A stretch of DNA of 64,000 bases from Medicago truncatula (Eukaryota; Streptophyta; Magnoliopsida; Fabales; Fabaceae), in contig NC_053042.1 of the NCBI RefSeq assembly GCF_003473485.1, forward strand, positions 43,611,762 through 43,675,761, in the 5' to 3' direction. The translations under genes and the position numbers were made by a program. The notes under the pieces were generated by a model that saw only the letters and a program-made list of their open reading frames with translations, did no database searches and had not been told where the DNA came from. The number at the start of each line of letters is the position of its first letter. Position 1 is the first letter of the stretch. Of the stretch, positions 17,891-60,290 are shown piece by piece.

Positions 17891-18310
17891 TGTTAGTTTG
17901 TTTTAATTCAAGTTTAGTTTAGTGATAATCACAATCAGTGGTTAATCACATTCTGTTTTAGTTTGTTATGAAGTTTGTTACAAGTTTGTTAGAGGTTAGT
18001 AGATAAGATCTAGAGTTTGTTACATTGCTTGTGCTTCAAGCAACTTAGCTAGATATTGTATATAAGCTACCTCCTTTGTACATTTCATATGTAGAATCAA
18101 TAAAGATCAATTACATTTTCATCATAACTTCTCTCTTCTCTCAATTCTCTCTCTCTAATTCACATAAACCTTAGAATAAGAAACTACTTCTGAACTGCTT
18201 CTGAAGAGTGCTTCTGAACTGCTTCTGAAGAGTGCTTCTGAACTAGCTTCTGAAGAGTGCTTCTGAACTGCTTCTGAACAAGCTTCCGCTTCTGATTTTC
18301 TGCGCTATCA
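17891..18310 (+). repeat. 5' LTR of the copia element (420 bp)
   Basis: Begins TGTTAG directly after the duplicated TCATC and ends GCGCTATCA before the primer-binding site. It holds a TATATAA box at 18059-18065 and an AATAAA signal at 18099-18104, consistent with U3, R and U5. Near its 3' end a 24-25 bp unit (CTTCTGAACTGCTTCTGAAG core) repeats in tandem from 18187 to about 18281. Confidence 0.9.
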
Positions 18311-18312
18311 AA

Positions 18313-18330
18313 TTGGCATCAAGAGCCTTT
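18313..18330 (+). promoter_or_regulatory. Primer-binding site of the copia element
   Basis: TTGGCATCAAGAGCC, three bases after the LTR end, is a variant of the TGGTATCAGAGC sequence complementary to initiator tRNA-Met used by plant copia elements. Confidence 0.7.
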
Positions 18331-18401
18331 GGTTTTGTTCTAAGGGGTAATCAAGATCTTCAATCACGCAATTTGTAGAAAGAAACGCTGAAGGAAACAC
18401 C

Positions 18402-20870
18402 ATGAATGGTAGCAGCAGTTTCAACACACATCTTCCAATTCTTGAAGCACGCAATTGGGAAAGATGGAGTGCAGTGATGAAGAATCTGTTTGGAGCACAA
18501 GATTTGCTTGAAATTGTGCAGAATGGTGTAGGTGAATTAGCTGCGAATGCCACTGAAGTGCAAAGGAACGCACACAAGGAATTGAAGAAGAAAGATTGCA
18601 AGGCTCTGTTCTTGATTCAACAAAGTCTTGATGAAGGAAACTTTGAAAGAATCTCAAAATCACTGAGTTCAAAGGAAGCATGGGACATTCTTTCAAAGTA
18701 TCATGAAGGTGATGATAAAGTGAAATTGATTAAGCTTCAATCACTGAGAAGGAAATTTGAATTGATGCAAATGGAAGATGATCAGAAGATTTCTGAGTAC
18801 ATCTCTAAACTCATCAATCTTGTGAATCAGATGAAGGCTTGTAGTGAAGCTATCACTGATCAACAGATAGTTGAAAAGATTATGAGGACCCTATCTTCAA
18901 GGTTTGATTTCATTGTGGTGGCAATTCAGGAATCAAAAGATGTTAAGACATTGAAGATTGAGGAGCTGCAGAGTTCATTAGAAGCTCATGAATTGATGGT
19001 TTCAGAAAGAAGCAATGAAAGATCAATTCAACAAGCCCTGCAAGTTCAAACTATCAAAAAGGATGATTATGATAGGAAGAACTTCAAGAAAGGGAAGAAA
19101 AACTCTAAGGGAGGAAACTGGTCTAAAGGCAAGAACAATGGATCTGATAAAGGTGAATCTTCAAAGGAAGGAAATTCTAATCAAAAGAAGAAAGTTGATA
19201 AGAAGAAGATTCAGTGTTTCAAATGTGAGAAATTTGGACACTATGCCTCTGAATGTTGGTCTGGTAAAGGAAAGCAATCAAAAAATGATGAAGAGGAAGC
19301 CAAAATTGCACAGGATGATTCAGATTATGAATCATTATTCATGATGGTTACAACAACTAGTAATGAGAGCTGCAATTCAGAAAGTTGGTTCTTAGATACT
19401 GGTTGTTCTAATCACATGACTGGAAACAATACATGGTTAAGAGAAGTGGATCCTGGAAGAAATACAAAGTTGAAACTTGCAGATCATAGAATCTTAATTG
19501 CAGAAGGAATGGGGAATATTGCTATTGAAGGAAAGAATGGGAAAGTGGCAATAATTGAAGAAGTTCTCTATGTTCCTGGAATGCAGTACAATTTGCTGAG
19601 TGTAGGTCAGTTCATTCAGAAATGATACTCAGTTACTATGAAGGACAACACCTTTAAGTTGTTTGATAATCATCAAAAGTTAGTTTTGAAAACTCCTCTT
19701 GCAAAGAATAGAACTTTTCAGACCAATATGAAAGCTGTAGAATTGAACTGTTTATCTACTATGGTAAAAGATGAAGATAGCTGGTTATGGCACTATAGAT
19801 TTGGTCATCTCAATTTTAGAGGTCTTAATCAATTGGTTGATAAAGAAATGATTCTAGGAGTGCCTAAAATTGAGATACCTAACACAGTTTGTGATACTTG
19901 CTTGTTGGGTAAGCAACCTAGAAGTGCATTCAGTTCAAGTTCAGCAAGTAGATCAAAGGAGCTGCTTAATGTTGTATATTCAGATGTGTGTGGTCCTTTA
20001 GAGGTTCCTTCATTAGGGGGAAACAAATATTTCATCAGTTTTGTTGATGAGTTTAGCATAAAACTCTGGTTATATTTGATTAAGGCCAAAAGTGAAGCAT
20101 TTGATGTGTTCCAGAAGTTTAAAATCTTAGTTGAAAAACAAAGTGGTAAATCCATTAAGATTTTAAGAACTGATGGTGGTGGTGAGTATACCTCAAAGGT
20201 GTTTGAGAATTTTTGTGAAGACAATGGCATTGTGCATGAAGTCACTGCTCCTTATACTCCACAACACAATGGTTTGGCTGAAAGAAGGAATAGAAGCCTG
20301 CTTGACATGACCAGAAGTATGCTAAAGATGAAGAAGATGCCTAATACATTTTGGGGAGAAGCAGTAAGAACTGCAGCATACATCTTAAACAGATGCCCCA
20401 CTAAGAAACTTAATCAAATTCCTGAAGAAATTTGGTTAGGATGCAAGCAGTCAGCAAAACACTTGAGAGTTTTTGGTTCATTGTGCTATATGCATATCCC
20501 TGATGCAAAGAGAAGGAAGTTGGGGGACAAGAGTGAGCCTATGATACTGGTTGGCTATTATGAAACAGGTGCATATAGATTGTATCATCCTCTAAATCAC
20601 TCTATAGTAATTAGTAGAGATGTAAAGATCTGTGAAAATGAAGCATGGGATTGGACTAAGAAAGAGAAGAGTTCCAGTCACACAATTCCCACAATAATTG
20701 AAGATGATGATCAAGTTGAACAATTTCAACTTGATACTGAAGTTCAACCTGAAGTGCATGTTGAAGAGAATCAAGTCACTAGAACTTCAGTGAGACAGAG
20801 ATTTGCTTCAACTAGATTAGCTGGACATGAAGTCATTCCAGACAATATAGTTAATGAAGAATGCTTCTGA
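18402..20870 (+). pseudogene. copia gag-protease-integrase polyprotein, one internal stop, RT/RNase H missing
   Basis: One frame runs 18402-20870, broken only by a TGA at 19623-19625. Gag fills about the first 260 codons (NWERWSAVMKNLF and UBN2-like helices). A CCHC zinc knuckle (CFKCEKFGHYASEC, C-x2-C-x4-H-x4-C) lies near codons 271-284 and the aspartic protease motif FLDTGCSNHM near 328. After the stop come the GAG-pre-integrase zinc site (H..H, C..C, in WHYRFGHL and CDTCLLGKQ) and the integrase core with the D-D-E residues in [16 protein letters not shown] and GLAERRNR. The frame ends about where the linker to RT should begin, fusing straight into the LTR remnant. The internal stop lies where relatives have a glycine, so it looks like a single point mutation, not a programmed site. 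Confidence 0.9.
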
Positions 20871-20914
20871 ACTGCTTCTGAACAAGCTTCCGCTTCTGAT
20901 TTTCTGCGCTATCA
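20862..20914 (+). repeat. 53-bp remnant of the 3' LTR
   Basis: Identical over all 53 bases to 18258-18310 of the 5' LTR and ending at the same GCGCTATCA, followed at once by the TCATC duplication. Confidence 0.9.
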
Positions 20915-30040: not shown

Positions 30041-31380
30041 TATTGATGTAGTATTTTTGCATCAAACAATGGTAAGTATTTATATCGTCTTCTTAGGGAC
30101 TAGTGCGATATCACAAACCGTTTGACACCAAATATCATTTTAAGTTAAAGATAATTTGTTGTTCGTTTTAGAAACTAAGTTGCAAGAGTAAAAATTGAGA
30201 GTAATAAGGCGTAAAAACGTTGGAATTAGAGTTCCTTGATTAAGCGTCAAACATAACCTAATAATCACATATATGGATTCCAGCGTTTTACCGATATTAT
30301 CACGTATCGCTCAACAAGATTATTCGTGTCCAAATAATCGTGTGAGATCAATTGTATTGTTCAATAGTTGATTTCCCAAACTATCAAACAATCCAATTGT
30401 CGATCATATCGTTTAATAGACGATTTCTCAATCCATTCAACGATCCGAAAGCTTTATGTACTGATACCTTGTGTGATTATCAAAACATCGATCCTATGTC
30501 TAGAATTATTGTTTTGATAGATAAATTATTCTAAACCTAGATTCAAAAGTACTTTTCAATAAAAATTAAATCAAAGATGAAAATGAATTGCAAGAATAAC
30601 TTTAATATCATGTAAATTGGTAGAATCATATATTACAAGATTAAAAGATTACATTCTAAGCTCAATCAAGTACCTCTAATCCCAACTAAGGAGATTTAGT
30701 TCATCATTGTCATGAGAACTTTACAAAAGTGGAAGGAAAGTTGAGAATCCATGCAAGGAACTCGATTTCTCCAAGAATCTCGATGAATCCACACTCGATC
30801 ACTATTGCCCACTGTAAACAATGTATTTTCGCCCTATTCTCTCTCTAAAATGTTATATGATAATGTCTCAATCGAGGGAAATGAGCTTTTATACAATTGC
30901 TGAAAAAATATAATTTCGCCTGGCGGATTTTGTCTTGCCATGGCGACTTGAGCTTGCTTTGCCAGTGGGTTTCTGCCACGTCACAAGGATCATATGAAAC
31001 CGCCTTATTTCGCCTGGCAGAAATATTTCTCACCATGGCGAATTGCTCTTGTCCTGTTTTTCCAACTCCCTGGAACTGCTCGCCATTGCTTCGCCAAGCG
31101 AGATAGTTCGCCATAGCCATCTCTGTGGCGAAGGAACCTGGAACTCTATGGAGTTGCTCGCCATGGCGAGATGGTCTTTGCTCATTTTTGGCTCTTGCTT
31201 GATGATGTTTTGGCACTCCATTCCTACACAAATGGGTAGAGTAAGATGACTAAAGCGTAATAGGTCAAAAATCACTTTTCTCTCGCTTTTCCCTAGATAA
31301 CTTGTAAAACAAGTAACAAACGTGTCATAAATAAACATTTAAAATACCACTTCCTGACACTTATCAGTTATAAAAGGTGA
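30041..31380. repeat. Probable non-autonomous transposon with CGCC/GGCG palindromes
   Basis: Carries a GTAAGTATTTATATCGTCTTC-like junction motif near 30072 and ends near TTCCTGACACTTATCAG. The segment 30910-31175 is locally G+C-rich and built from variants of TTCGCC(T/A)TGGCGA, including CCATGGCGA at 30939, 31034 and 31163. Frames there are short and composition-driven. The class is not clear; borders are approximate. Confidence 0.45.
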
Positions 31381-32492
31381 GTTGATGACCCTGATTTTTC
31401 TACGCCTTTTATTTATATAATTTGTGCCCAAACCCCTGAAATCTGCCACATTCATTAATGTCTTCTTACAAAACTTTCAAATATTCTTCTTCGCCAAACA
31501 CACCGGCATACACTAACAATATGCCTTATGGTGCCAGTTTAAAAATTGGGTCTTGTTAACGACTGCCTCCGGAAAACTTTTTAAACATTTTAAATTAAGT
31601 CATTATTCAACAAAACAAATGTTAAAATTTTCAATTTTCAATGCACTTTATTACATAAACTTTCGTAAAAAGCTGCCATTGAAAGTCTTTAACTAGTGCC
31701 CCAGAAGCACTAGTTAACATTTCTTTCTTTCTTTTTTTTTTTAATATCAGCTTATGTTATATGGCTCAACATCTAACCCAAATTGATACCGCCAAAAACT
31801 TTTAATATCTTGATCCACTCTTCTACTACATCCGTTCACTATGATTATAATCCATGCAATTGGCTCGCTCACCGGCACATAACCTCGCAGAGACTTATGA
31901 TCTCATTTCTAAAACCCCCATTATCACAGAACACCTTGTTAAATCCTCTCAGACTAGAAAAATCCATCTCATTCACACAAACACTCAGTATAGCCTTAAG
32001 AACAACATACCAATATCTTAAACATTTTACAGTGGAACAATTACCTTTCTAATATGTTCGTAATTGACAAGTATTATTACATTGTGCTATAGGTATAACA
32101 AAAATGTTATGCTAACACAAAATATATACATTTTGTATTGCCCTATTTTAAAAAAAAGAAGGTGTTGTGATATATACATAACTTTTCTCTCATATTCTAC
32201 ATTTCCTCTTTCTCGTATTCAATTAAGACAATAATTTTCTCTCTTCTTTATCGTTTCTTCACATAGGCAAAATAAAATCCCTCCACAAATCAAAAGTCAT
32301 GACAATAATAATATTTCAAGAAAGATAAGATCCGACTCGTAACACAACAAGAAAATAAGCTTTCACTTTCCTTCCAACGCCTAACAAGACAACAAAAATT
32401 AAATCCTCAACATTATGACGTGCGATAAAATATCCTTTTAAGGTGGGTTGTTTTTTTAACTTATTCTTCCCTCATTTCTCCATATATTACGC
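31381..32492. other. Spacer, no gene seen
   Basis: A+T-rich, only short frames without recognisable features. Confidence 0.45.
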
Positions 32493-45246: not shown

Positions 45247-48200
45247 ATGGGAGTTGTCACTGTAGGTGAATTTAAGCCTAGTGTTTCAGGGAAGAGGAGC
45301 TTTCGTCCAAGCTCAAGCATAAGGCATGCTACTGAATGGTAATATTCTGTTTCTTGTGTGTTTTTACTATTCATTTTTGGTTTTATATGAATGTTTTTGG
45401 ACCGCGGTGAGTTTGTAGAATCATATGTCGGCAAAATCACAGTCTCATCGTAATTTTGTCAAACTCACCGGATACATTAGGGTGATTTTTCTTTTTCTAA
45501 GGTGAAGAGAATAAATGTAGTGAGGACTCAATGAATAGAAATTAGGCAGAAAGACAAAAATTGATCTAATGAGTAATGACCCACTATAATATAAACTTTA
45601 AGAACAAATCTTAATTTTTTTCCCTCTGTATTGTCATTATCACATGCCTAGAAGTAGATTTTGGTCTAATAATTGGATTCAAATTCTCTAAGGTTAATAC
45701 TTCTTGGTTTCATTTTTGTGGGTCTACATTCTACAATTAATTCAACTGTCCTTTTCCCATTTGATTCTGAAGGTACCAGCTGGGAAACTTTTTCTTTTGT
45801 CTTGTAGTGTTGCTCATGTGTTACTTAGTTCATCCCTTGTGTGCTTATTTTAATTTCCAACCCTCCAGAAGCATTCACATAGACAAACTGACACGTCGAT
45901 ATGTCAAAATTTGTAATAATTTATGTAAATTAATTAAATGTATGTTATTATTTAATGTACATGATACCAAATACATCTTCGATCAGAAATATCGGTGCAA
46001 TAGAGTTTCCCATCTAATTTGGTTAACATATTCATAACCTATGCAAACTTATGGTGGTAGGAAAAGTAACACGTTCAGTTTCAACCATCATGGTATCGTT
46101 TAAACATTGAAATTGGCAGATAAATTAAGCTTAACACGTGACATTGACTTTGATGTAATTATGTACACTCTAGACAGAACCATACTATGGTGTTGCAGCG
46201 TGGTGAATGTCAAAATCCCACGTGTCTTTTATGAAAACTCCAATTAACATTTGTCTGCAATTATTCACGTATGTTTATTATCTTTAGGTAGCCTCTATAA
46301 GGCTATGTTAGTAGAGTGTGTCTAATAAGATGTCACCGACTATAAGAAAACATTTTGGCTGTACATAGCCTTAAACATCAATATGACAATACTTGTGTGG
46401 CACAAATCCTTTCCCTTTCTTATCAGTGAATTTTACTCATCAATGATTTAGATTAATGGGTTCCAGTGTTTCACTACAGTGCCATAATAACATATTCCAC
46501 AATATTTTTAATTATACTTTAACTCGTGTAACTATATAAGTCTCTGAAGGTGTAACACAGTGATACGAGTTGAGACGCTGAAGGAGTTTAAAAAGGAGGT
46601 TTAGGGTTCGATCCATGCTGTTAATAATTTTCTTCTCCCTTTAACAAACTAACCATTAACATTTCCCTATAAAAAATATTGTCTAAGGCAATGTTAAAGA
46701 CTAAGTAGTCCCACTCAAATTATGTATTTATTGAATTGGGACCATTCTCATCTACGTACTTGATCTTGCAAGATTACTTTGTTTTTCTGTTTGTGGTTAA
46801 CAAAACACATACATTGAACTCCACCTTGTACATTAAATTGCATACACTATATACCTAATATCATATACATGCTGCAGCATAAGACTATTCTAAGGTCTCT
46901 AATATAATTGCACTTTGGTAATATGTATATATAGCTGCTTCAGTTGCCACTACTTTATATTGAATTTTCCATGTCTACCATATGCAATTATTCAGCTAGG
47001 TTTGTGTATTACAGGCCGATATCTGATGTCTCTAGTGATCTTAGCATCGAAATAGGAGCTTCATGCTTTGCACTTCACAAGGTAAAAAAAACAAGCTTCC
47101 TTTCTTATATGTTACTGCATATTCAGCATAGTGTTCTTTGATAAATATATACATGACATTTTTTTCTGTATAGAATATGCCAACATGCATGAGTTTTACC
47201 TTACTGATAATTGATCATAAAACCATGAAAATAATGCTCCATGTTTGTTTTTTTTTCTTTCTAAAATGAAAAGAGAGATAATATTGAAGTACTAATATGT
47301 TGTTTGCAACTTTTTTTTTCCTACAGTTTCCTCTAGTTTCTAGGAGTGGAAGAATTAGGAAACTATTGTTAGAATCAAAAGATTCTAAAGTTTCGCGCAT
47401 AAGTTTCCCTAATGTACCAGGTGGTGTGGAGGCATTTGAGCTAGCTGCAAAATTCTGTTATGGAATTAGCATCGAGTTCACTCTCTCCAATGTTGCTATG
47501 CTAAGATGCATAGCCCATTTTCTAGAAATGACAGAAGAATTCGCCGAGAAAAACTTGTTGACGCGAGCCGAATCATATCTAAAAGAGACGGTGCTTTCAA
47601 GCACAGCAAACTCAATATCCGTTCTTCACCGATGTGAAACTCTCCTACCAATTTCTGAAGAGATTAGCCTTGCTAACAGATTAATCAATGCAATTTCAAG
47701 TAATGTGTGCAAAGAGCAACTTGCTTCTGGTTTGCAAAAACTAGACCATAGTTTTCCTTCTAAAATCATTGAACCTGAAACACCTTCAGAATGGTGGGGA
47801 AAATCTCTTACTGTTCTTAATCTTGATTTCTTCAAAAGAGTTTTATCTGCAATGAAGTCAAAGGGTCTTAAACAAGACATTATCAGCAAAATTTTGATAA
47901 ACTATGCACATAATTCTCTTCAAGTAGTCAAAGGAAATTTACTTGATTTAGAATTTTTGAAGAAACAAAGGGTCCTTGTTGAAACAATAACTAGTTTACT
48001 ACCAACTCAATCAAGGAAAAGTCAGATTCCAATAGCTTTTCTCTCAAGTTTGTTGAAATCTGCAATAGCATCATCAGTATCTACTTCTTGTAGATCTGAT
48101 TTGGAGAGAAGGATTGGTCTGCAACTTGACCAAGCAATTCTTGAAGATATTCTGATTCCAACAAGTTTATATCAAAACAATAACCACAGCAGTACTATCT

Positions 48201-50108: not shown

Positions 50109-50483
50109 GGGTAAATACCTCTTTTCGTCCATATAATATTAGCGAATTTCGATTTTAGTCCCTGTAAAAAAAAAGATTTAGATTTTGTCCCTGTAATTTC
50201 AGATTCTTCCACTTTTGATCCCTCATTCCACCACGTTAGCAGAATCTGCATACATGGCACGTAAAATGAGGGATCAAAAGTGGAGGAATATGAAATTACA
50301 GGGATCAAAAGTGGGAGGAATCTAAAATTACAAGGACGTAATTGATGCAGATTTTGCTGACGTGATGAAAGGACCAAAAGTGGAAGAATCTGAAATTACA
50401 GGGACAAAATCTAAATCTTTTTATTTACAGGGACTAAAACCGAAATTCGCTAATATTACATGGACGAAAAGAGGTATTTACCC
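50109..50483. repeat. Mutator-type MITE with long TIRs and 9-bp TSD
   Basis: Begins GGGTAAATACCTCTTTTCG and ends with the inverted form; the arms align for about 110 bp on each side. Flanks AAAAAAGAA at 50100-50108 and 50484-50492 are an exact 9-bp duplication. Non-coding. Confidence 0.82.
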
Positions 50484-52453: not shown

Positions 52454-52780
52454 CTATCGACTTATTGGACCCCAAATAAAAATAGGTCTAGCCTTCAAAA
52501 GCAACTGAGCAAGCTTATTTTGGACATTGAGGCTTATGACTTGATTAACACCACCTACAAATTGTTGTCCTATAAACACAGCTGGCACACTTGGTCGACA
52601 ACCAAGCTGAACCAATGCACTTTCTATTTTCTCACCATTTACCATTTTGTCAATCTCAATAACTGTAGAGTTGGCACCAAAGCTTCTTATCAGAGCTTTC
52701 ACAGAATCCCCCATGCAACAACTGCTCTTGCTAAATATCACCACTGGCTTATCAGCTATCAATGCTGCTACTATATACAT
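52454..52780 (-). CDS. CC-type glutaredoxin (ROXY class), unusual C-terminus
   Basis: An intronless 108-residue protein. The thioredoxin-fold core has KPVVIFSKSSCCMGDSVKAL with the CC-type active site CCMG, then VPAVFIGQQFVGG, the cis-Pro and glutathione-binding region. CC-type glutaredoxins are a land-plant class that interacts with TGA transcription factors in development and nitrogen signalling; they act in nucleus and cytosol. I start at 52780 rather than at the ATG six codons upstream because the length to KPVVIF then matches the paralogue at 59877. Relatives end in a GA(L/I)W(L/V) tail that recruits TOPLESS or affects TGA binding; here the end is KARPIFIWGPISR, with a residue run past the Trp. 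So this paralogue may be altered in function. A TATA-like TATTTATT complement lies about 97 bp upstream. Confidence 0.9.
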   Translation of the reverse strand: MYIVAALIADKPVVIFSKSSCCMGDSVKALIRSFGANSTVIEIDKMVNGEKIESALVQLGCRPSVPAVFIGQQFVGGVNQVISLNVQNKLAQLLLKARPIFIWGPISR

Positions 52781-54132
52781 TGCTACAAAATATTTCAAAT
52801 TTGTACCTTTTTATATATGAGTGACTTGAAGAATTTTCTTTGCTATTATGATTAAGTTGAGCACATGAGAAGGTCTATTTATTGTAGCTTCATGATCGGT
52901 GGTTTTAGAATAATATTTAAAACAGAAAAAGGTTTTAAGAGTTGTCATTGGTGGATTAATTCCCAATATTCTTTTTGTGATATTGCTTGATAGTAACCAC
53001 CAATATTATGCTTTTACATAATAATGAATCATGAGTAACTTATGGGTGCTTCTTTGCTATGTTAAGATTGGCTTTGTATTTACTATTGCAAATTTTATTA
53101 CTTGAAATTAAAACTAATGTTATGTTATCTCAAGTCCATTTGCGAATTGCATAGTGAAAATCATTTCAGGATTAAGCTATGATATATCACACATATTGAA
53201 TCATCATTGGCTATAAAATAAGTGCAGGTGCATTTAGTACACATTCTCTGTTTTCCCCTTTTTCCCATTTGAGAAAGGTAAAAACGTTACACCACGTAAC
53301 AATATTTATTTTAACCTTTGATATATCGTGGTTCATGTTTTACCGCAATATAAAGGTTTATGACCGCTACCATGACCACAACCAAAATTTAATTTAAAAC
53401 CATTAGTGCGAAAATGTAAAAAATGACCGTCTTAGAACTAAAAGATGACATTATATATAGCAATGATGTTAATGAACTTGTTAGTATAGAATATAAAGAC
53501 TTAATAGTATTTGTGAATAGGAATACAGAGAGGTCAATTTACTCCACCGGTCCCTAATTATAAACATTCATTGGAAAAAGGTTAGGAAAATGCTAACAAG
53601 TTATCTTTAAATATATAGACACGTGTTTTTAAGACAAAATTTCTTTCGTTTCTTAAACAATATCCTTAGAACACTTGTTAGCATGATCAAAAAATTATCC
53701 TTAAATAATATAAACCCGCTTTCAACTTTCTAAAAGTACTTATCAATTTTTTTATGGTCATAATCCTAATTAGTATCACTAATTTGCATAGTAATATGAA
53801 AAGTCAATATTGAGTACATTATGCACAAAATACAAATTAATATTTATAGATAAAATCGACACTTTAACTACACTACATACTTTTCTTAATAGTATACGTG
53901 ACATTTACAACTAAGACTTATATTTAGAGGCTATCATCTTGATTTGGATTTCCTTTCTTAAGCATTCCATTACCAAGTAACAATAAAATCAACATGGTAA
54001 CCATGCCTTTCTATTGTGCTCGTATTTTGAATCGTAAATATTGCTGATTTGAAATGGTGAGACAATAATGTTCTAACTAATTTGATGTGATTCATTATTA
54101 CTATATAAACAGGTTGAAGAATTTGAAAGAGT
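52781..54132. other. Upstream region of the first glutaredoxin, no gene seen
   Basis: Promoter side of the minus-strand glutaredoxin, then A+T-rich spacer up to the gene-fragment mosaic. No long repeat recognised. Confidence 0.45.
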
Positions 54133-54339
54133 ATGAAGAACACTAGCCATCGTCCACATTTCGCTGCTGCCTCCTCATCGGTTCCACCTAAAGCCTCCTC
54201 ATTGGTCGCGCCTGCCTCCTCAATGGTGAGACATTGCTGGTCTCCACTTCATGCCACTCCCAGTTGGATCCGTGCAAGATATCTCAGAAGAGTAAGAATA
54301 GTTCACTGTTTTTTGGTTTGTTTACTTGTTCCTGTGTGA
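54133..54339 (+). pseudogene. Exon-like Ala/Ser-rich frame at the head of the fragment mosaic
   Basis: A frame with higher G+C than its surroundings begins MKNTSHRPHFAAASSSVPP and contains a GCCTCCTCA-NTGGT motif repeated three times; it runs into intron-like sequence near 54290. Not recognised. It may be another captured exon or part of the O-fucosyltransferase fragment downstream. Confidence 0.3.
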
Positions 54340-54748
54340 ATAATTTTGAGTCCTACAGTGTACATCTGTGGAAAATTTTCATAGATGTCATTTTCAGACA
54401 AGGTCATCGGACACAATACCGATATTGACACGCCGACATTAGCAATAATTTGAGAAAAGAGAATAATTGATTGAAGCAATATGTGTCGGTGTTTTGTTAG
54501 TGTCATACACCAAACGCGTCTTCAATCTGAAGTGTTACCGCTACATTGGTTATTTAAGTATGACACTGAAATTAATATAATCAGAGGCTACCCTTGTACC
54601 TACAAATTTGTTGCCTGCCATTTTTGAGTAGACAAAATACTACAAGCTTTTGCTTATTTTTTATCTTGTTTGGAAAGATTATGGTGTTGATGCTGTTGTA
54701 AAAGACCTTTCTCATTATATATGATATGATCCTTGTTGTACTATTCAG

Positions 54749-55442
54749 CTCAATAGAGAAGGTGTTTTGCTTTTACGTGGCTTGGACTTGAGGCTTTCAA
54801 AGGATCTTCCTTCTGATCTTCAGAAGCTTCGTTGAAGGTATATCAAAGATTCTTCTTTTCTTGTATGGTTTTAGAAAGTAAAAAGAAAAATGCTATTTGT
54901 CGAAACACGAGGAAGAGTATTTTGATTGATGATTGCGTTCGTGAAAATAAGTTAGGCCCTAACTCAACTTCACAAGCTGTAACCTGAAGACTAATTAATC
55001 TCTATAAGCACTATTTATACTATATCAGATCATATCATCAGGGGATGTGAGACTAAGCATACCGCGAGGAAAAGCCAAGAGAGTACTTAGAAGGACTAAG
55101 AAATTTATTTATATGACAAGTAATTGCAGTTTGTGAAAATTGTCATCTAAATTTTCAGGTAGCTTTTAATGCATTAAGATTTGCTGAGCCCATTGAGGAA
55201 CTTGGTAACAAGATTGCAGAGAGAATGAAAAGCAAAGGACCTTACCTTGCTCTTCATTTAAGGATGGAAAAAGATGTATGGGTGAGGATGGTTGTCTTGT
55301 CTCCCTGGTCTAAGTCCTGAGTTTGATGAGATTATTAACAATGAGAGGATACAAAGACTAGAACTTTTGACAGCAAGATCAAACATGAATTACCATCAAA
55401 GAAAAATGGCTGGAATCCTTTGAATGTTATGGAAGTTATGAG
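54749..55442 (+). pseudogene. O-fucosyltransferase family gene fragment, frameshifted
   Basis: Two exon-like blocks keep their AG/GT borders. Block 1 (54749-54837) reads LNREGVLLLRGLDLRLSKDL and PSDLQKLR, then a one-base loss makes a stop. Block 2 (55159-55442) reads VAFNALRFAEPIEELGNKIA, GPYLALHLRMEKDVWVR and, after frameshifts near 55288-55310, SPEFDEIINNERIQ and LLTARSNMNYHQRKMAG. This is the central part of plant GT106/DUF246 O-fucosyltransferase-like proteins (HLRMEKD motif). The start and the whole C-terminal half are missing, so it is a dead fragment. Confidence 0.82.
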
Positions 55443-55745
55443 GTAATTCTTCTATCTATCTGGCTACCAAAATTTTGATATGGATTGTATTCACAGCTAA
55501 TTCTCGGTATATTGGCTGCCAATTGACTAAAAGTATTCAACTATTATTTTTATTTTTTTTGAAATTTGCTTTTTCCCTAATGATACAATTAGGTGCATCC
55601 TTGTGGAGAATGAACTGTGGAACATTTTCCTGAATCTAGATTTCTGCTTTTTGTGCCAGACCACCATTAAGGATTTGTTCCCACCAAATCCTTAGATAAA
55701 GTTGAGTTTCAGTTCATGCTAACTGGTAATCAACCTGTTTGACAG

Positions 55746-55970
55746 GGTGCGGAGCTCTTTTCTTTGAGGTATGAATTGACAGTTCCATTTGCCAGGTTTG
55801 TGGCAATGAATGGTCTGACATCTTTGAAAAGGTATCAAATAGCTAAGGTCTACGGAAGCGACAAACCATCTAAAGGAAGACACCGTGAATTTTATCAATG
55901 TGACTTTGATATTGCAGGTTCATCAGCAAAAATCAGCTCATCCAGATTTTGAGGTTGTTAGAATTTTGAC
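55746..55970 (+). pseudogene. Histidyl-tRNA synthetase exon fragment
   Basis: After a CAG acceptor, 55746-55918 encodes [40 protein letters not shown] and [13 protein letters not shown], ending at a GT. This is the class II synthetase motif 2 region of cytosolic HisRS (family form: LRYDLTVPFARYVA...[29 protein letters not shown]). The conserved YRRD is YGSD here. DFEVVRI follows near 55950, also a HisRS block. No other part of the about 850-residue protein is present. Confidence 0.85.
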
Positions 55971-57085
55971 TTAATTTTGAGGTTGTTAGAATCCATGATG
56001 AGCTGAAATCCCTGCTGCAATTTTTTTTTTCCTTCTGAATTTGTAGAACTACTTGGACTGTTTAGCGAGTTCATCATTTGATATTTCTATAACCATTATT
56101 ATGGTCTGTCTATACATAGTTTAGTGAGCGGTTATTGGCATAGCACAATATCATAATATGTATTACTATAACTGATGAGCTTATACGTTTCATTATTTAT
56201 TTTGAAGTACAACTTTTAATGCCATCTTTGTCGGCATCAGGTCTTAGACTTGTGTTGCTATCAGACTACCTGCTGGTGATGAGTTTTTGCGAGCTAAATC
56301 TGAATGATTTTAATCAACCTGACTCATGTGTTATGCCTGCATGCTGATGTGATCTTTGCAATGATCTTGTTAAATGTGACTGGTTTACTGACTGTTACTA
56401 TAATTTAACCTTATAACTTTCAAAAACATAAAAGAGAAAGAGATTGAATCAAAACCTGCATATCTAAAAGAACACAAGTGGAATAACGTGTTTGATCAAC
56501 ATTAAAGATAATTATCACAAGTGCTATAGCAATAGTTGCTACAGAAAGTGAAACATTTGTGTCATTCATTGTAGAGAAACTAAACTAAATACTGAAGTAA
56601 AGATACTACTTCTAAACTCAAACATAAAACACTTTTTTCTTAGTTCTTGAGAATGAAAAGTGAAAATACTACTTCTAAGCTACATAACATAAAAGGAACA
56701 CATCTCGTGACACTTCTTAGCCATCTCAAGGTCTGCCTCGACAACACCACCTTTCCATTTCCAACGGGATATTTCACCAAGAACACGCAGGAGGTGTTGA
56801 TACCCCCAATGGTATGTGCTTCTAAACTAAATGTCTTCTAAGTGTGTAACATCTGTCAGAGGATACCCTTTGCAGATGTATAGTATTATTGGCACTCCAT
56901 TATAACTTATGTTAATTGAAAATCTTCCATGCACCTAAGCCTCAATTTTTGTGCTTCTCTTAGTAATGAAGCACACCATAACATATATAAGGTGGATACG
57001 TTTGATTTTTTCTCTGATCGTTTGCTTATTGGAAAAGGATTTATTTTGATACTTTGTTTTTCAGGTTTGTTGGAAAAGTGATAAG

Positions 57086-57163
57086 ATGCTTGTATTATTT
57101 GAAACACCAGCAGGTTTTGCCCTTTTCAAATTGTTGGATGAAGGAAAGCTTTCTGAATTTCAG
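57086..57163 (+). pseudogene. NOP58 first-exon fragment
   Basis: An ATG opens MLVLFETPAGFALFKLLDEG followed by KLSEFQ and a GT donor. This is the start of the NOP5NT domain of the box C/D snoRNP core protein NOP58, which continues for about 500 residues in real genes. Nothing further of NOP58 is found downstream, so only exon 1 is present. Confidence 0.82.
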
Positions 57164-57645
57164 GTCATTAATATCTCATAAACTTCTTTACAAACTTGGT
57201 TTCATTTTCAGTTTTTTTTACAATTTTTAGTGTAATGGATGCCACAGTGCTTTATTACCCTTAGTTACTTGGTAGCTTTTCTAGCTTGGAATATATCATA
57301 CGAACCATGGAATGCATTTTGATGGAATTTTGAGGTCCATTTTCACTTTCTATCTCTCTGCTGAATATTCTGTTCAACATCCATCATTGCATTCATCTTG
57401 GATCCTTCATCTTAGGGTTCGTAATCTCAATTTGTAATGTGTTCATGGTGATTTCACTAAGATTTCATCTATTTATCTAATCTCGATCATGTGATTCACC
57501 TTCAACTATGCCTGTTCATGATATTTCACTAAAATGTCTGTTAGTTCTAAGAATGTTTGATGGATTTTGCCATAGTATTTTATCACTGATCTGTTTTATA
57601 TGAATGCTTGGAGGGGGTTTAGATTTACCCTGTTCTTGTAAGCAG

Positions 57646-57987
57646 GGAAGCCACAGAGACATTTGCTCATAATTGGGTGGAGTGCATTTGCGAACAACAA
57701 AAAGCTAATGGCTCTTTTCCAAGACCAGTTGGGTATCTCCCTCGCCCTTATAAGGTTAGCTCTCTTATCTGCAGTTATTAAATTCTCAAAGCAATTTTAT
57801 TAACATCGAGGCTGTTATAATTGTGGCTTTTGATAATTCTCAGGGACCTCACTCGCGTAGAGAAACTAATGACTCTGTTAATGATGAAACAAGTGAGGAC
57901 AATGTAGAAGAGGAAAGAAAGATTATGAGAGGTACAAGTGAGGGCAGAAGAGGAAAGAAAGATGATATGTACATTTACTGCAGATGA
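57646..57987 (+). pseudogene. Two exon-like blocks of an unrecognised gene
   Basis: 57646-57754 (after AGCAG, before GTTAGC) reads EATETFAHNWVECICEQQKA and FPRPVGYLPRPYK. 57844-57987 (after TCTCAG) continues in phase as GPHSRRETNDSVNDETSEDN and ends at TGA. Composition and intact splice sites say this is real exon sequence; I do not recognise the family. An EEERK segment is duplicated in the second block. Confidence 0.4.
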
Positions 57988-58046
57988 TAGGCACTGTTAG
58001 TTACTTAATGTTAACTGATTTGAGAATATATTTTAATATATAATAA

Positions 58047-58435
58047 GCCAAATACCTCCCTAGGTTCTTTAAGTTTCACGTTTGTTTCAGATAGGTCCTT
58101 TAAGTTTCTAAGGTTTCAGATAAGTCCTTTAAGTTTCGAGTTTGTTTTGGATAGGTCCTTTAAGTTTTTAAAGTTTCAGATATGTCCTTTAAGTTTCGAG
58201 TTTGTTTTAGATAGGTCCTTTCTATCAAATCAACTTTGGCTTAACGGAGGTTGATAGAAAGGACCTATCTGAAACAAACTCGAAACTTAAAAGGACCTAT
58301 CTGAAACCTTAGAAACTTAAATGACCTATCTAAAACAAACTCAAAACATAAAGGACCTATCTGAAACCTTATAAACTTAAAAGATCTATCTAAAACAAAC
58401 GTGAAACTTAAAGAACCCAGGGAAATATTTGACCT
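58047..58435. repeat. Mutator-type MITE with long TIRs and 9-bp TSD
   Basis: Ends GCCAAATACCTCCCTAGGTT and, mirrored, CCCAGGGAAATATTTGACCT. ATATAATAA occurs on both sides (58038-58046 and 58436-58444). Each arm is made of several GATAGGTCCTTTAAGTTT units in tandem, so the arms of about 180 bp are internally repetitive and nearly the whole element folds back. Confidence 0.82.
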
Positions 58436-58759
58436 ATATAATAATTTCTAAAAGTTTGGTCGTTATTGCTTTTCTTACCTAGTTCTAGATAAAACATAGT
58501 CAATAAGCATGCCAACTTATGAAAACAGCATAGAGAATATATTGTAGTAGCAGGTCAACTTATGAAAATAGTGCAGTTTTTAAAAATGTACAAGATTGGA
58601 TAGTGCAAGCGTACACTAATAATTAGTGATTGTGAAAATAATTATTTATCGACATTTTAAGTATATTTTTCACAATCTAGCTCAATCACTTTTTGGTTAG
58701 ATACCCTAGAAAAATTAAATCATAATAATATAAATAGTTAGCAAGAAACTATGAAATTG

Positions 58760-59120
58760 CTAGGAACTTTCGGCTAGAGATTTACTTTAAAATTATTATG
58801 GCAATATCCAAGCCAAACAGTCAGGAAACTTAAATTTTGGACAGCGAGAAGCTTCTCACAGAGCGCATATGAAAGAAAGGATGCTTGCCGTTGAAGGTGT
58901 TTTTTTTGCCAGGTATTAGTTTCAAAATAGCTAGGAATTTCTAAATATTAGTTGCCAATTAGCTAGGAAATATTTTGCTAGGCAATTTGCCGCCCCAATC
59001 CATGCTACGGCCAGTATGACAGCTAAATCACGACTAAATGGTAGGTAAATGACTTTGCTAGAAATTAGCTACGTGTTAGCTACGAACATCTCGTAGCAAA
59101 TCCCTGATTTTCTTGTAGTT
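58760..59120 (-). mobile_element. CACTA-like terminal region
   Basis: Read on the minus strand from 59120 the end is AACTACAAGAAAATCAGGGA, one base off the CACTACAAGAAAA terminus of plant CACTA (En/Spm) elements, and continues TTGCTACGAG. The adjoining 350 bp carry many GCTAG(G/A)AA and TAGCTA motifs in both orientations, the subterminal repeats where the transposase binds. The matching opposite end was not found in the window. Confidence 0.55.
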
Positions 59121-59123
59121 ATT

Positions 59124-59876
59124 AAAAAAACCGAAGAGGTAAAAAATTTAAAATAAAATCACTTCACCACTTGCTCAAAAAAAAAAAAGAGTAAGATTTA
59201 AGGTTAAAAATTGCAGCTAAATTTTGATAAAAAAAGTTGCAAACAAATTTAATCATTTTGCATGGAAAGTGTCGTGAACTAAAGAAAGGTCTGTCCTATT
59301 ATATAAGTTAAATAAATTTTTAGTCCTCTGAAATTTTCAAACGCATCACATATCACATTCTCGTCATACCTATTTCCTACATTTTCGGAACCGCTTTAAC
59401 CTTTGACTTGTGTTTTTTGCACATCATTTTCTTCTCAAAATACCAAAATCACATTGGGGTTGGGGGTAGAGTGTACATATTGACGCAGTCGGAAGTGTAG
59501 AATAGCAAGCGCCAAACCTAAAAACCCTCCTACATCATATTCAACTTCAACATCTAAATATCACGGTAAAAGGTCTATAAACTCACGGTTTGCCCACCAC
59601 TCAACCAACACATAAGATATCTTTATCAAACTTATGATACGTAAATCGAACCTCCTTATTACCTACGTGAATACTTGGACATAGATAGCAGTGTGTTTTT
59701 TGTGAAATGGAAAAGAAAAAAAGAATAAAGTAATAAAACTTTTAATATGTAAACAAAGCAATAATATATATAAGGCGTAAGTGCTCACATCACATACATT
59801 ATCTATAACCATGATATATAAGCTATACGTGCATGTAGAAATCAGTAACAAACAGCTATCTTTGATTTGATTCAAA
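59124..59876. other. Spacer 3' of the second glutaredoxin, no gene seen
   Basis: A+T-rich; includes the likely 3' UTR of the minus-strand glutaredoxin. No other feature recognised. Confidence 0.45.
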
Positions 59877-60185
59877 TTAAATCCATATAGCTCCGGCATT
59901 CATGAGCATAGGTACTAACTCATTCCGAAGATGAAGGGTCATGATTCTTTTAGAGCCACCAATGAATTGTTGGCCAATAAACACAGCTGGTACACTTGGT
60001 TGGTACCTTAGCTGAATCAGTGCTCTTTCAATCTGTGTCCCATTTGTTATCTCATCAAGCTCATAAACAATTGGGTTTGCACCAAAGCTTCGTATCAATG
60101 TCATAATGGAGTGGCTCAAACAACATGTGCTCTTGCTGAATATCACCACAGGTTTATCACTTACCATCCTTGTAATCATGTCCAT
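59877..60185 (-). CDS. CC-type glutaredoxin (ROXY class)
   Basis: An intronless 102-residue protein, the standard length. It starts MDMITRMVSDKPVVIFSKST and has active site CCLS at residues 21-24, PSVPAVFIGQQFIGGSKRIM (cis-Pro and glutathione-binding segment), and ends NAGAIWI, a close version of the C-terminal ALWL tail used in TGA/TOPLESS contacts. It is clearly a paralogue of the gene at 52454 (shared KPVVIFSKS.CC, RSFGAN, PSVPAVFIGQQF) on the same strand 7 kb away. Such genes often come in tandem arrays. Monothiol-type chemistry is likely given the class; the partner and target are unknown. A TATATATA run about 107 bp upstream is a suitable TATA box. Confidence 0.95.
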   Translation of the reverse strand: MDMITRMVSDKPVVIFSKSTCCLSHSIMTLIRSFGANPIVYELDEITNGTQIERALIQLRYQPSVPAVFIGQQFIGGSKRIMTLHLRNELVPMLMNAGAIWI

Positions 60186-60290
60186 GATTAGCTAGAATTA
60201 ATTTTGATTAATGTTGATGAAGTAATGTAATGTATTGGAAGAGTTTTGAGCTAATTTTCTATATGTAGAAACTAAGCTCCGATAAAGGGA

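What the first reader, a model, noticed from the sequence alone, without database searches (positions are those of the whole stretch)
54133..57987. Mosaic of fragments from at least three unrelated genes, all on one strand with introns kept
Within 4 kb, the + strand carries, in order, a central part of an O-fucosyltransferase gene, one motif-2 exon of histidyl-tRNA synthetase, only exon 1 of NOP58, and two exons of an unrecognised gene, each bordered by AG/GT sites. The sources are unrelated and each is partial. Retained introns mean DNA-level, not mRNA-level, capture. Helitrons, Pack-MULEs and Pack-CACTA elements are known to do this. It lies between two tandem glutaredoxin paralogues. The capturing element is not identified; a CACTA-like end at 59120 is the only candidate terminus I see.
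Basis: partly seen in the sequence, partly recalled or inferred. Interest (0 to 1): 0.72.

Follow-up and report, generated by a model that had tools for sequence, protein, structure and literature searches.

The report
Plant gene-fragment mosaic, probable CACTA remnant
A stretch of plant DNA carries broken pieces of at least three unrelated genes side by side, most likely picked up and dropped there by a jumping gene of a well-known kind, so it is a good but ordinary example of a known process.

Summary
The observation largely holds. On the + strand, 54.2-57.2 kb carries, in order, a central piece of an O-fucosyltransferase gene (three exons, two introns kept; joined Pfam O-FucT E=9.8e-25), a motif-2 exon of cytosolic-type histidyl-tRNA synthetase plus a frame-shifted continuation (best PDB E=4.7e-24), and the first coding exon of NOP58 (NOP5NT E=6.1e-7). 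Two further exon-like frames (57.65-57.99 kb) match nothing searched. Reading frames are broken: these are pseudogene fragments, lying between two glutaredoxin genes.

Best reading: a decayed, non-autonomous Pack-CACTA-type element. A CACTA-like right end (12 of 13 bases) at 59108-59120 borders the window's densest GCTA cluster. But no convincing left end, target-site duplication or transposase was found, and parent genes and an empty site could not be tested because ten host-genome searches did not complete. A transduplicated gene mosaic is well supported; capture by this CACTA end is only the likeliest route. Soybean Tgm-Express1 is a close published precedent. New member of a known kind; low interest.

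The parts
54222..54291 (+). O-fucosyltransferase fragment, exon a (left limit uncertain, no acceptor seen; the frame is open upstream past 54133)
   Evidence: Adds about 10 bits to the O-FucT match (63.7 to 73.5); donor AGAAGA|GTAAGA; open frame 54127-54339
54749..54837 (+). O-fucosyltransferase fragment, exon b, with a stop codon in its frame near the end
   Evidence: acceptor TTCAG before 54749; no family match on its own
55159..55442 (+). O-fucosyltransferase fragment, exon c, with two changes of frame
   Evidence: Pfam PF10250 E=1.6e-12 for its first part; frames; joined match E=9.8e-25
55746..55919 (+). Histidyl-tRNA synthetase exon with motif 2
   Evidence: phmmer to 4g84_A, E=1.1e-23; acceptor TTTGACAG, donor-like GCAG|GTTCAT
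55920..56010 (+). Probable continuation of HisRS coding sequence in another frame, with a 19-base repeat at 28-base spacing
   Evidence: [10 protein letters not shown] in a different frame; alignment extends, 1.4 bits more; D17
57065..57163 (+). NOP58 first coding exon (ATG at 57086)
   Evidence: NOP5NT E=6.1e-7; human NOP58 residues 1-24; AG before and GT after
57646..57754 (+). Unidentified exon-like frame 1
   Evidence: Open frame with AG/GT borders only; no family match above cut-off
57844..57987 (+). Unidentified exon-like frame 2, ending in a stop
   Evidence: Acceptor and open frame only; no family match above cut-off
58047..58434 (.). Foldback (MITE-like) insertion between the fragments and the CACTA-like end
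   Evidence: Inverted arms 58043-58190 / 58290-58437, 89% complementary; flanking 10-base direct repeat TATATAATAA at 58037 and 58435
58678..59107 (+). GCTA/TAGC-rich stretch resembling a CACTA subterminal region
   Evidence: 12 GCTA sites in 400 bases, the window maximum, mean 2.0; motif chosen after the fact
59108..59120 (-). CACTA-like right terminus, 12 of 13 bases of CACTACAAGAAAA; the terminal base differs
   Evidence: consensus quoted in PMC7210773 (passage)

Best explanation
A decayed, non-autonomous transposon of the Pack-TYPE kind, most likely CACTA (Pack-CACTA), copied partial genomic pieces of at least three unrelated host genes with introns, carried them as one block, and inserted between two glutaredoxin genes. 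The left terminus was later lost or was never intact. A foldback MITE also inserted near its right end. The mosaic, its order and its pseudogene state are shown; capture by one CACTA element, insertion as one block and loss of the left end are inferred.
For: Three unrelated partial genes on one strand within 3 kb. Two O-FucT introns kept, splice-site-like borders. Broken frames. CACTA-like terminus with 1 mismatch in 13 at 59108-59120: the window holds 3 such matches against a mean of 0.17 (largest 1) in 30 base-composition shuffles. It borders the window's highest GCTA density. Published precedents: Tgm-Express1 with five gene fragments and introns (PMC1947982, abstract and passages); maize Pack-CACTA elements hold the most distinct loci (PMC8903248, passages); gene fragments in Chenopodium CACTA elements (PMC8978399, passages).
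Against: No convincing left end. Matches in the right orientation are CACTACA at 53871, which agrees for seven bases only and whose preceding bases CTA do not equal the ATT after 59120, and CACAACAAGAAAATA at 32343, 22 kb or more away with zinc-finger and NPH3 reading frames between. No inverted copy of the 370-base end elsewhere by blastn or nhmmer. The right end has T where the consensus needs its terminal G. Against dinucleotide-preserving shuffles looser terminus matches are at chance (4 found, 4.64 expected; 12 found, 11.14 expected). The GCTA motif was chosen after seeing the sequence: fourteen other 4-mers cluster more strongly in the window, and a motif-free repeat count puts the stretch only in the top 7-8% of 1272 windows when started at 58700 or 58720, and in the top 28% when started at 58650. 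No transposase domain in six frames at E<=0.01. The end lies 1.1 kb from the last exon-like frame and 1.9 kb from the NOP58 exon, with a MITE between, so linkage is positional only.
Confidence: 0.58

Rival explanations
1. The fragments were captured by a different element, a Helitron or a Mutator-like Pack-MULE, whose ends are lost or not recognised; the CACTA-like end at 59120 is an unrelated relic.
For: Helitrons and Pack-MULEs do the same thing (PMC13317346, section 7). The CACTA end has no convincing partner. A simple scan of 49-62 kb gave four hairpin-plus-CTRRT sites and three 5'-end-like sites.
Against: Of the four 3' candidates two lie inside the GCTA-rich stretch and one inside the glutaredoxin coding region; the only + strand 5' candidate, 54999, lies inside an O-FucT intron and would cut that fragment in two. 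Among the 25 of 53 inverted pairs shown for 53500-59400, one (I17, 25 bases, 72%) brackets all the recognised fragments, too short and weak for Mutator ends.
Confidence: 0.2
2. No single element: several separate events (filler DNA at double-strand break repair, or repeated insertions) put the fragments side by side.
For: A 19-base repeat at 28-base spacing inside the HisRS part (D17) could be filler; no common outer boundary is shown.
Against: All three recognised fragments share one orientation and keep splice-site-like borders, as in Tgm-Express1. Three fragments in one orientation is weak evidence by itself (chance one in four).
Confidence: 0.17
3. The pieces belong to one real multi-domain gene.
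For: Order and strand are consistent, and splice-site-like borders are present.
Against: Each piece is a partial domain of a different family, and frames are broken by a stop and frame changes.
Confidence: 0.03

Closest known systems
Tgm-Express1 (soybean CACTA element in the wp allele)
   Same: Similar size (5.7 kb there, about 5 kb here if the element runs from 54.2 to 59.1 kb), several unrelated host gene fragments with introns and usable splice sites (PMC1947982, abstract and passages).
   Different: Tgm-Express1 has inverted repeat ends and lies in intron 2 of a flavanone 3-hydroxylase gene with known chimeric transcripts; here only one possible end is seen, the place is intergenic and transcripts could not be looked for.
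Pack-CACTA elements of Arabidopsis and maize
   Same: Non-autonomous, carry coding DNA, some from several loci (PMC8903248, passages).
   Different: Annotated there by paired TIRs (CACTACAA in Arabidopsis) and target-site duplications, which are not both present here.
Pack-MULEs and gene-capturing Helitrons
   Same: Carry fragments of host genes (PMC13317346, section 7).
   Different: No Mutator-type terminal repeats and no convincing Helitron ends found.

Membership tests
Pack-CACTA | Right terminus matching CACTACAAGAAAA (inverted) | tested here: met
   12 of 13 bases at 59108-59120; the terminal base differs
Pack-CACTA | Matching left terminus in inverted orientation | tested here: not met
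   Only CACTACA at 53871 (seven bases) and a mismatched site at 32343, 22 kb away; no inverted copy of the 370-base end by blastn or nhmmer
Pack-CACTA | 3-base target-site duplication | tested here: inconclusive
   ATT follows 59120; CTA precedes the only nearby left candidate, 53871, so that pair fails, but the true left end is unknown
Pack-CACTA | Subterminal short repeats | tested here: inconclusive
   GCTA density is the window maximum, but the motif was chosen after the fact; a motif-free count is in the top 7-8% or the top 28% depending on the start chosen
Pack-CACTA | Captured partial host genes, no transposase | tested here: met
   O-FucT, HisRS, NOP58 pieces; no transposase domain in six frames of 53000-59901 at E<=0.01
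Pack-CACTA | Parent genes elsewhere in the same genome | not testable with these tools
   The genome search gave no answer in ten tries
Helitron | 5' TC and 3' hairpin-CTRR ends bracketing the fragments | tested here: not met
   Simple scan with recalled end motifs, 49-62 kb: four 3' and three 5' candidates, no pair that brackets all fragments
Pack-MULE | Long terminal inverted repeats bracketing the fragments | tested here: not met
   25 longest of 53 inverted pairs in 53500-59400 seen; the one that brackets all recognised fragments is 25 bases at 72%

The most novel reading that the evidence does not exclude
The locus is a hybrid element frozen part-way through the proposed tandem-insertion capture pathway (complementary terminal deletions, as reviewed in PMC13317346), so that a one-ended Pack-CACTA with its captured exons is left as a visible intermediate, and its exons may still be spliced into transcripts from the glutaredoxin neighbourhood.
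Probability: 0.05. Interest if true: 0.45.

Novelty: new member of a known kind. Interest (0 to 1): 0.2.

Why it matters
It adds one more probable case of a plant transposon shuffling exons of unrelated genes, with splice-site-like borders kept. It would matter beyond that only if chimeric transcripts or sister copies in the genome were found.

Tried and rejected
Searching the host genome for parents and sister copies: the same genome search did not complete ten times. A left CACTA end by exact 7-mer, pattern with mismatches, blastn and nhmmer: nothing convincing; CACTACA at 53871 was considered and set aside because it agrees for seven bases only, its flank does not match the right flank, and the + strand holds six CACTACA in 64 kb. 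Helitron ends: candidates, none convincing. Identity of the last two exon-like frames: nothing above a Pfam cut-off or in PDB. A minus-strand frame at 56680-56826 looked exon-like by eye; only a sub-threshold match (DUF7030, E=0.041) and no PDB match at E<=10, dropped. A 28-base piece of the CACTA-like end in viral contigs: no exact match, as expected for plant DNA. The motif set used first (19 in 400 bases, next best 5) was chosen after looking at that stretch and is not used as a test; the motif-free test gave only modest support.

Full report
What is there. The + strand carries three recognisable, partial and unrelated genes in order. First, an O-fucosyltransferase piece in three exons: the first part of exon c alone matches Pfam O-FucT at E=1.6e-12, and the joined pieces run collinearly over model positions 97-227 of 326 at E=9.8e-25. 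Exon a is supported by a gain of about 10 bits. Exon b alone and the second part of exon c alone match nothing at E<=1; their support comes from collinearity in the joined match. The two introns between the three exons are kept. Second, a histidyl-tRNA synthetase exon with motif 2, closest in PDB to human cytosolic HisRS at E=1.1e-23; Pfam gives only sub-threshold matches for it. Coding sequence seems to continue past its donor-like border in a different frame (a gain of 1.4 bits, so weakly supported). Third, the first coding exon of NOP58 (NOP5NT E=6.1e-7; human NOP58 residues 1-24, E=2.2e-4). Two more exon-like frames follow (57646-57987) but match nothing above a cut-off, so a fourth source gene is not established.

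State of the fragments. O-FucT exon b has a stop in its own frame near its end and exon c changes frame twice. The HisRS continuation is out of frame and holds a 19-base repeat at 28-base spacing. These are pseudogene fragments. Splice-site-like AG and GT borders lie on both sides of O-FucT exons b and c, HisRS, NOP58 and the first unidentified frame; exon a shows a donor only, the last frame an acceptor only. Retained introns argue against capture from spliced mRNA for the O-FucT piece; for HisRS and NOP58 the borders point the same way, but parent introns could not be compared.

Surroundings. Two glutaredoxin genes on the minus strand flank the mosaic (52457-52810 and 59880-60191), 74% identical over a 208-column alignment. 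A six-frame Pfam scan of 53000-59901 at E<=0.01 found only NOP5NT (23.5 bits, below its cut-off of 27 in that long frame) and O-FucT, both on the + strand, and no transposase or reverse transcriptase. That scan does not see HisRS, so it can also miss other short exons. A foldback element with a 10-base flanking direct repeat lies between the last exon-like frame and the CACTA-like end. The window looks like a legume: Rfam reports MIR5284, which I recall as a Medicago family; this is recall, not a result.

The carrier. At 59108-59120 the minus strand reads the CACTA terminal consensus CACTACAAGAAAA (quoted for a radish element in PMC7210773, passage) with one mismatch, at the terminal base. Three such matches exist in the window against a mean of 0.17 in 30 base-composition shuffles; with looser limits the numbers are at chance against dinucleotide shuffles. 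The 400 bases inside it have the window's highest GCTA count, 12 against a mean of 2.0. That motif was picked after reading the sequence, fourteen other 4-mers cluster more strongly in the window, and a motif-free repeat count puts the stretch in the top 7-8% of 1272 windows from 58700 or 58720 and in the top 28% from 58650. I found no convincing left end: CACTACA at 53871 has the right orientation and place, but agrees for seven bases only and is preceded by CTA where the right flank gives ATT. No Helitron or Mutator ends fit. So the terminus is a plausible relic, not a proven element.

Mechanism. Most likely a Pack-CACTA-type element acquired genomic pieces by the route proposed for such elements, tandem insertion followed by aberrant excision with terminal deletions (PMC13317346, section 7), moved them here as a block, and decayed. 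Capture and movement as a block are inferred; that review also says that another mechanism for capturing unlinked genes may await discovery. I put transposon transduplication of some kind at about 0.8, and this CACTA end as the carrier at about 0.58.

Novelty. The soybean CACTA element Tgm-Express1 carries fragments of five unrelated genes with introns and canonical splice sites (PMC1947982, abstract and passages); maize Pack-CACTA elements often hold coding DNA from several loci (PMC8903248, passages); Chenopodium CACTA elements also carry gene fragments (PMC8978399, passages). I ran six literature searches, none aimed at this exact locus, so I claim nothing about whether it is in print. The finding is a probable new member of a known kind.

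Noticed in passing
18251-20914: Ty1/copia remnant: two reading frames with gag, beta-barrel, pre-integrase, integrase and SH3-like domains but no reverse transcriptase domain. The second frame ends at a second copy of a 60-base stretch (18251-18310 / 20855-20914, 98%) that looks like the end of the LTR, which suggests a deletion of the rest of pol and most of the 3' LTR. Sequence after 20914 was not scanned for domains.
   Followed up: partly
50109-50483: Foldback MITE flanked by a 9-base direct repeat AAAAAAGAA that contains an Rfam MIR5284 match on the minus strand at 50191-50301: probably a MITE-derived microRNA family.
   Followed up: partly
58047-58434: Second foldback MITE, with 60-base repeats (three in register from 58061, two from 58290) and a 10-base flanking direct repeat, beside the mosaic.
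   Followed up: partly
45797-45809: Another 12-of-13 match to CACTACAAGAAAA, minus strand, with an intact CACTACAAGA end; it is not in one of the eight densest GCTA windows listed. A further one lies at 32343 on the + strand.
   Followed up: no
56680-56826: Minus-strand open frame of 48 residues that looks exon-like by eye; only a sub-threshold Pfam match (DUF7030, E=0.041) and no PDB match.
   Followed up: partly
30766-31250: Stretch with the window's strongest clustering of CGCC, GCGA and GCCA, overlapping minus-strand frames of 134 and 102 residues.
   Followed up: no
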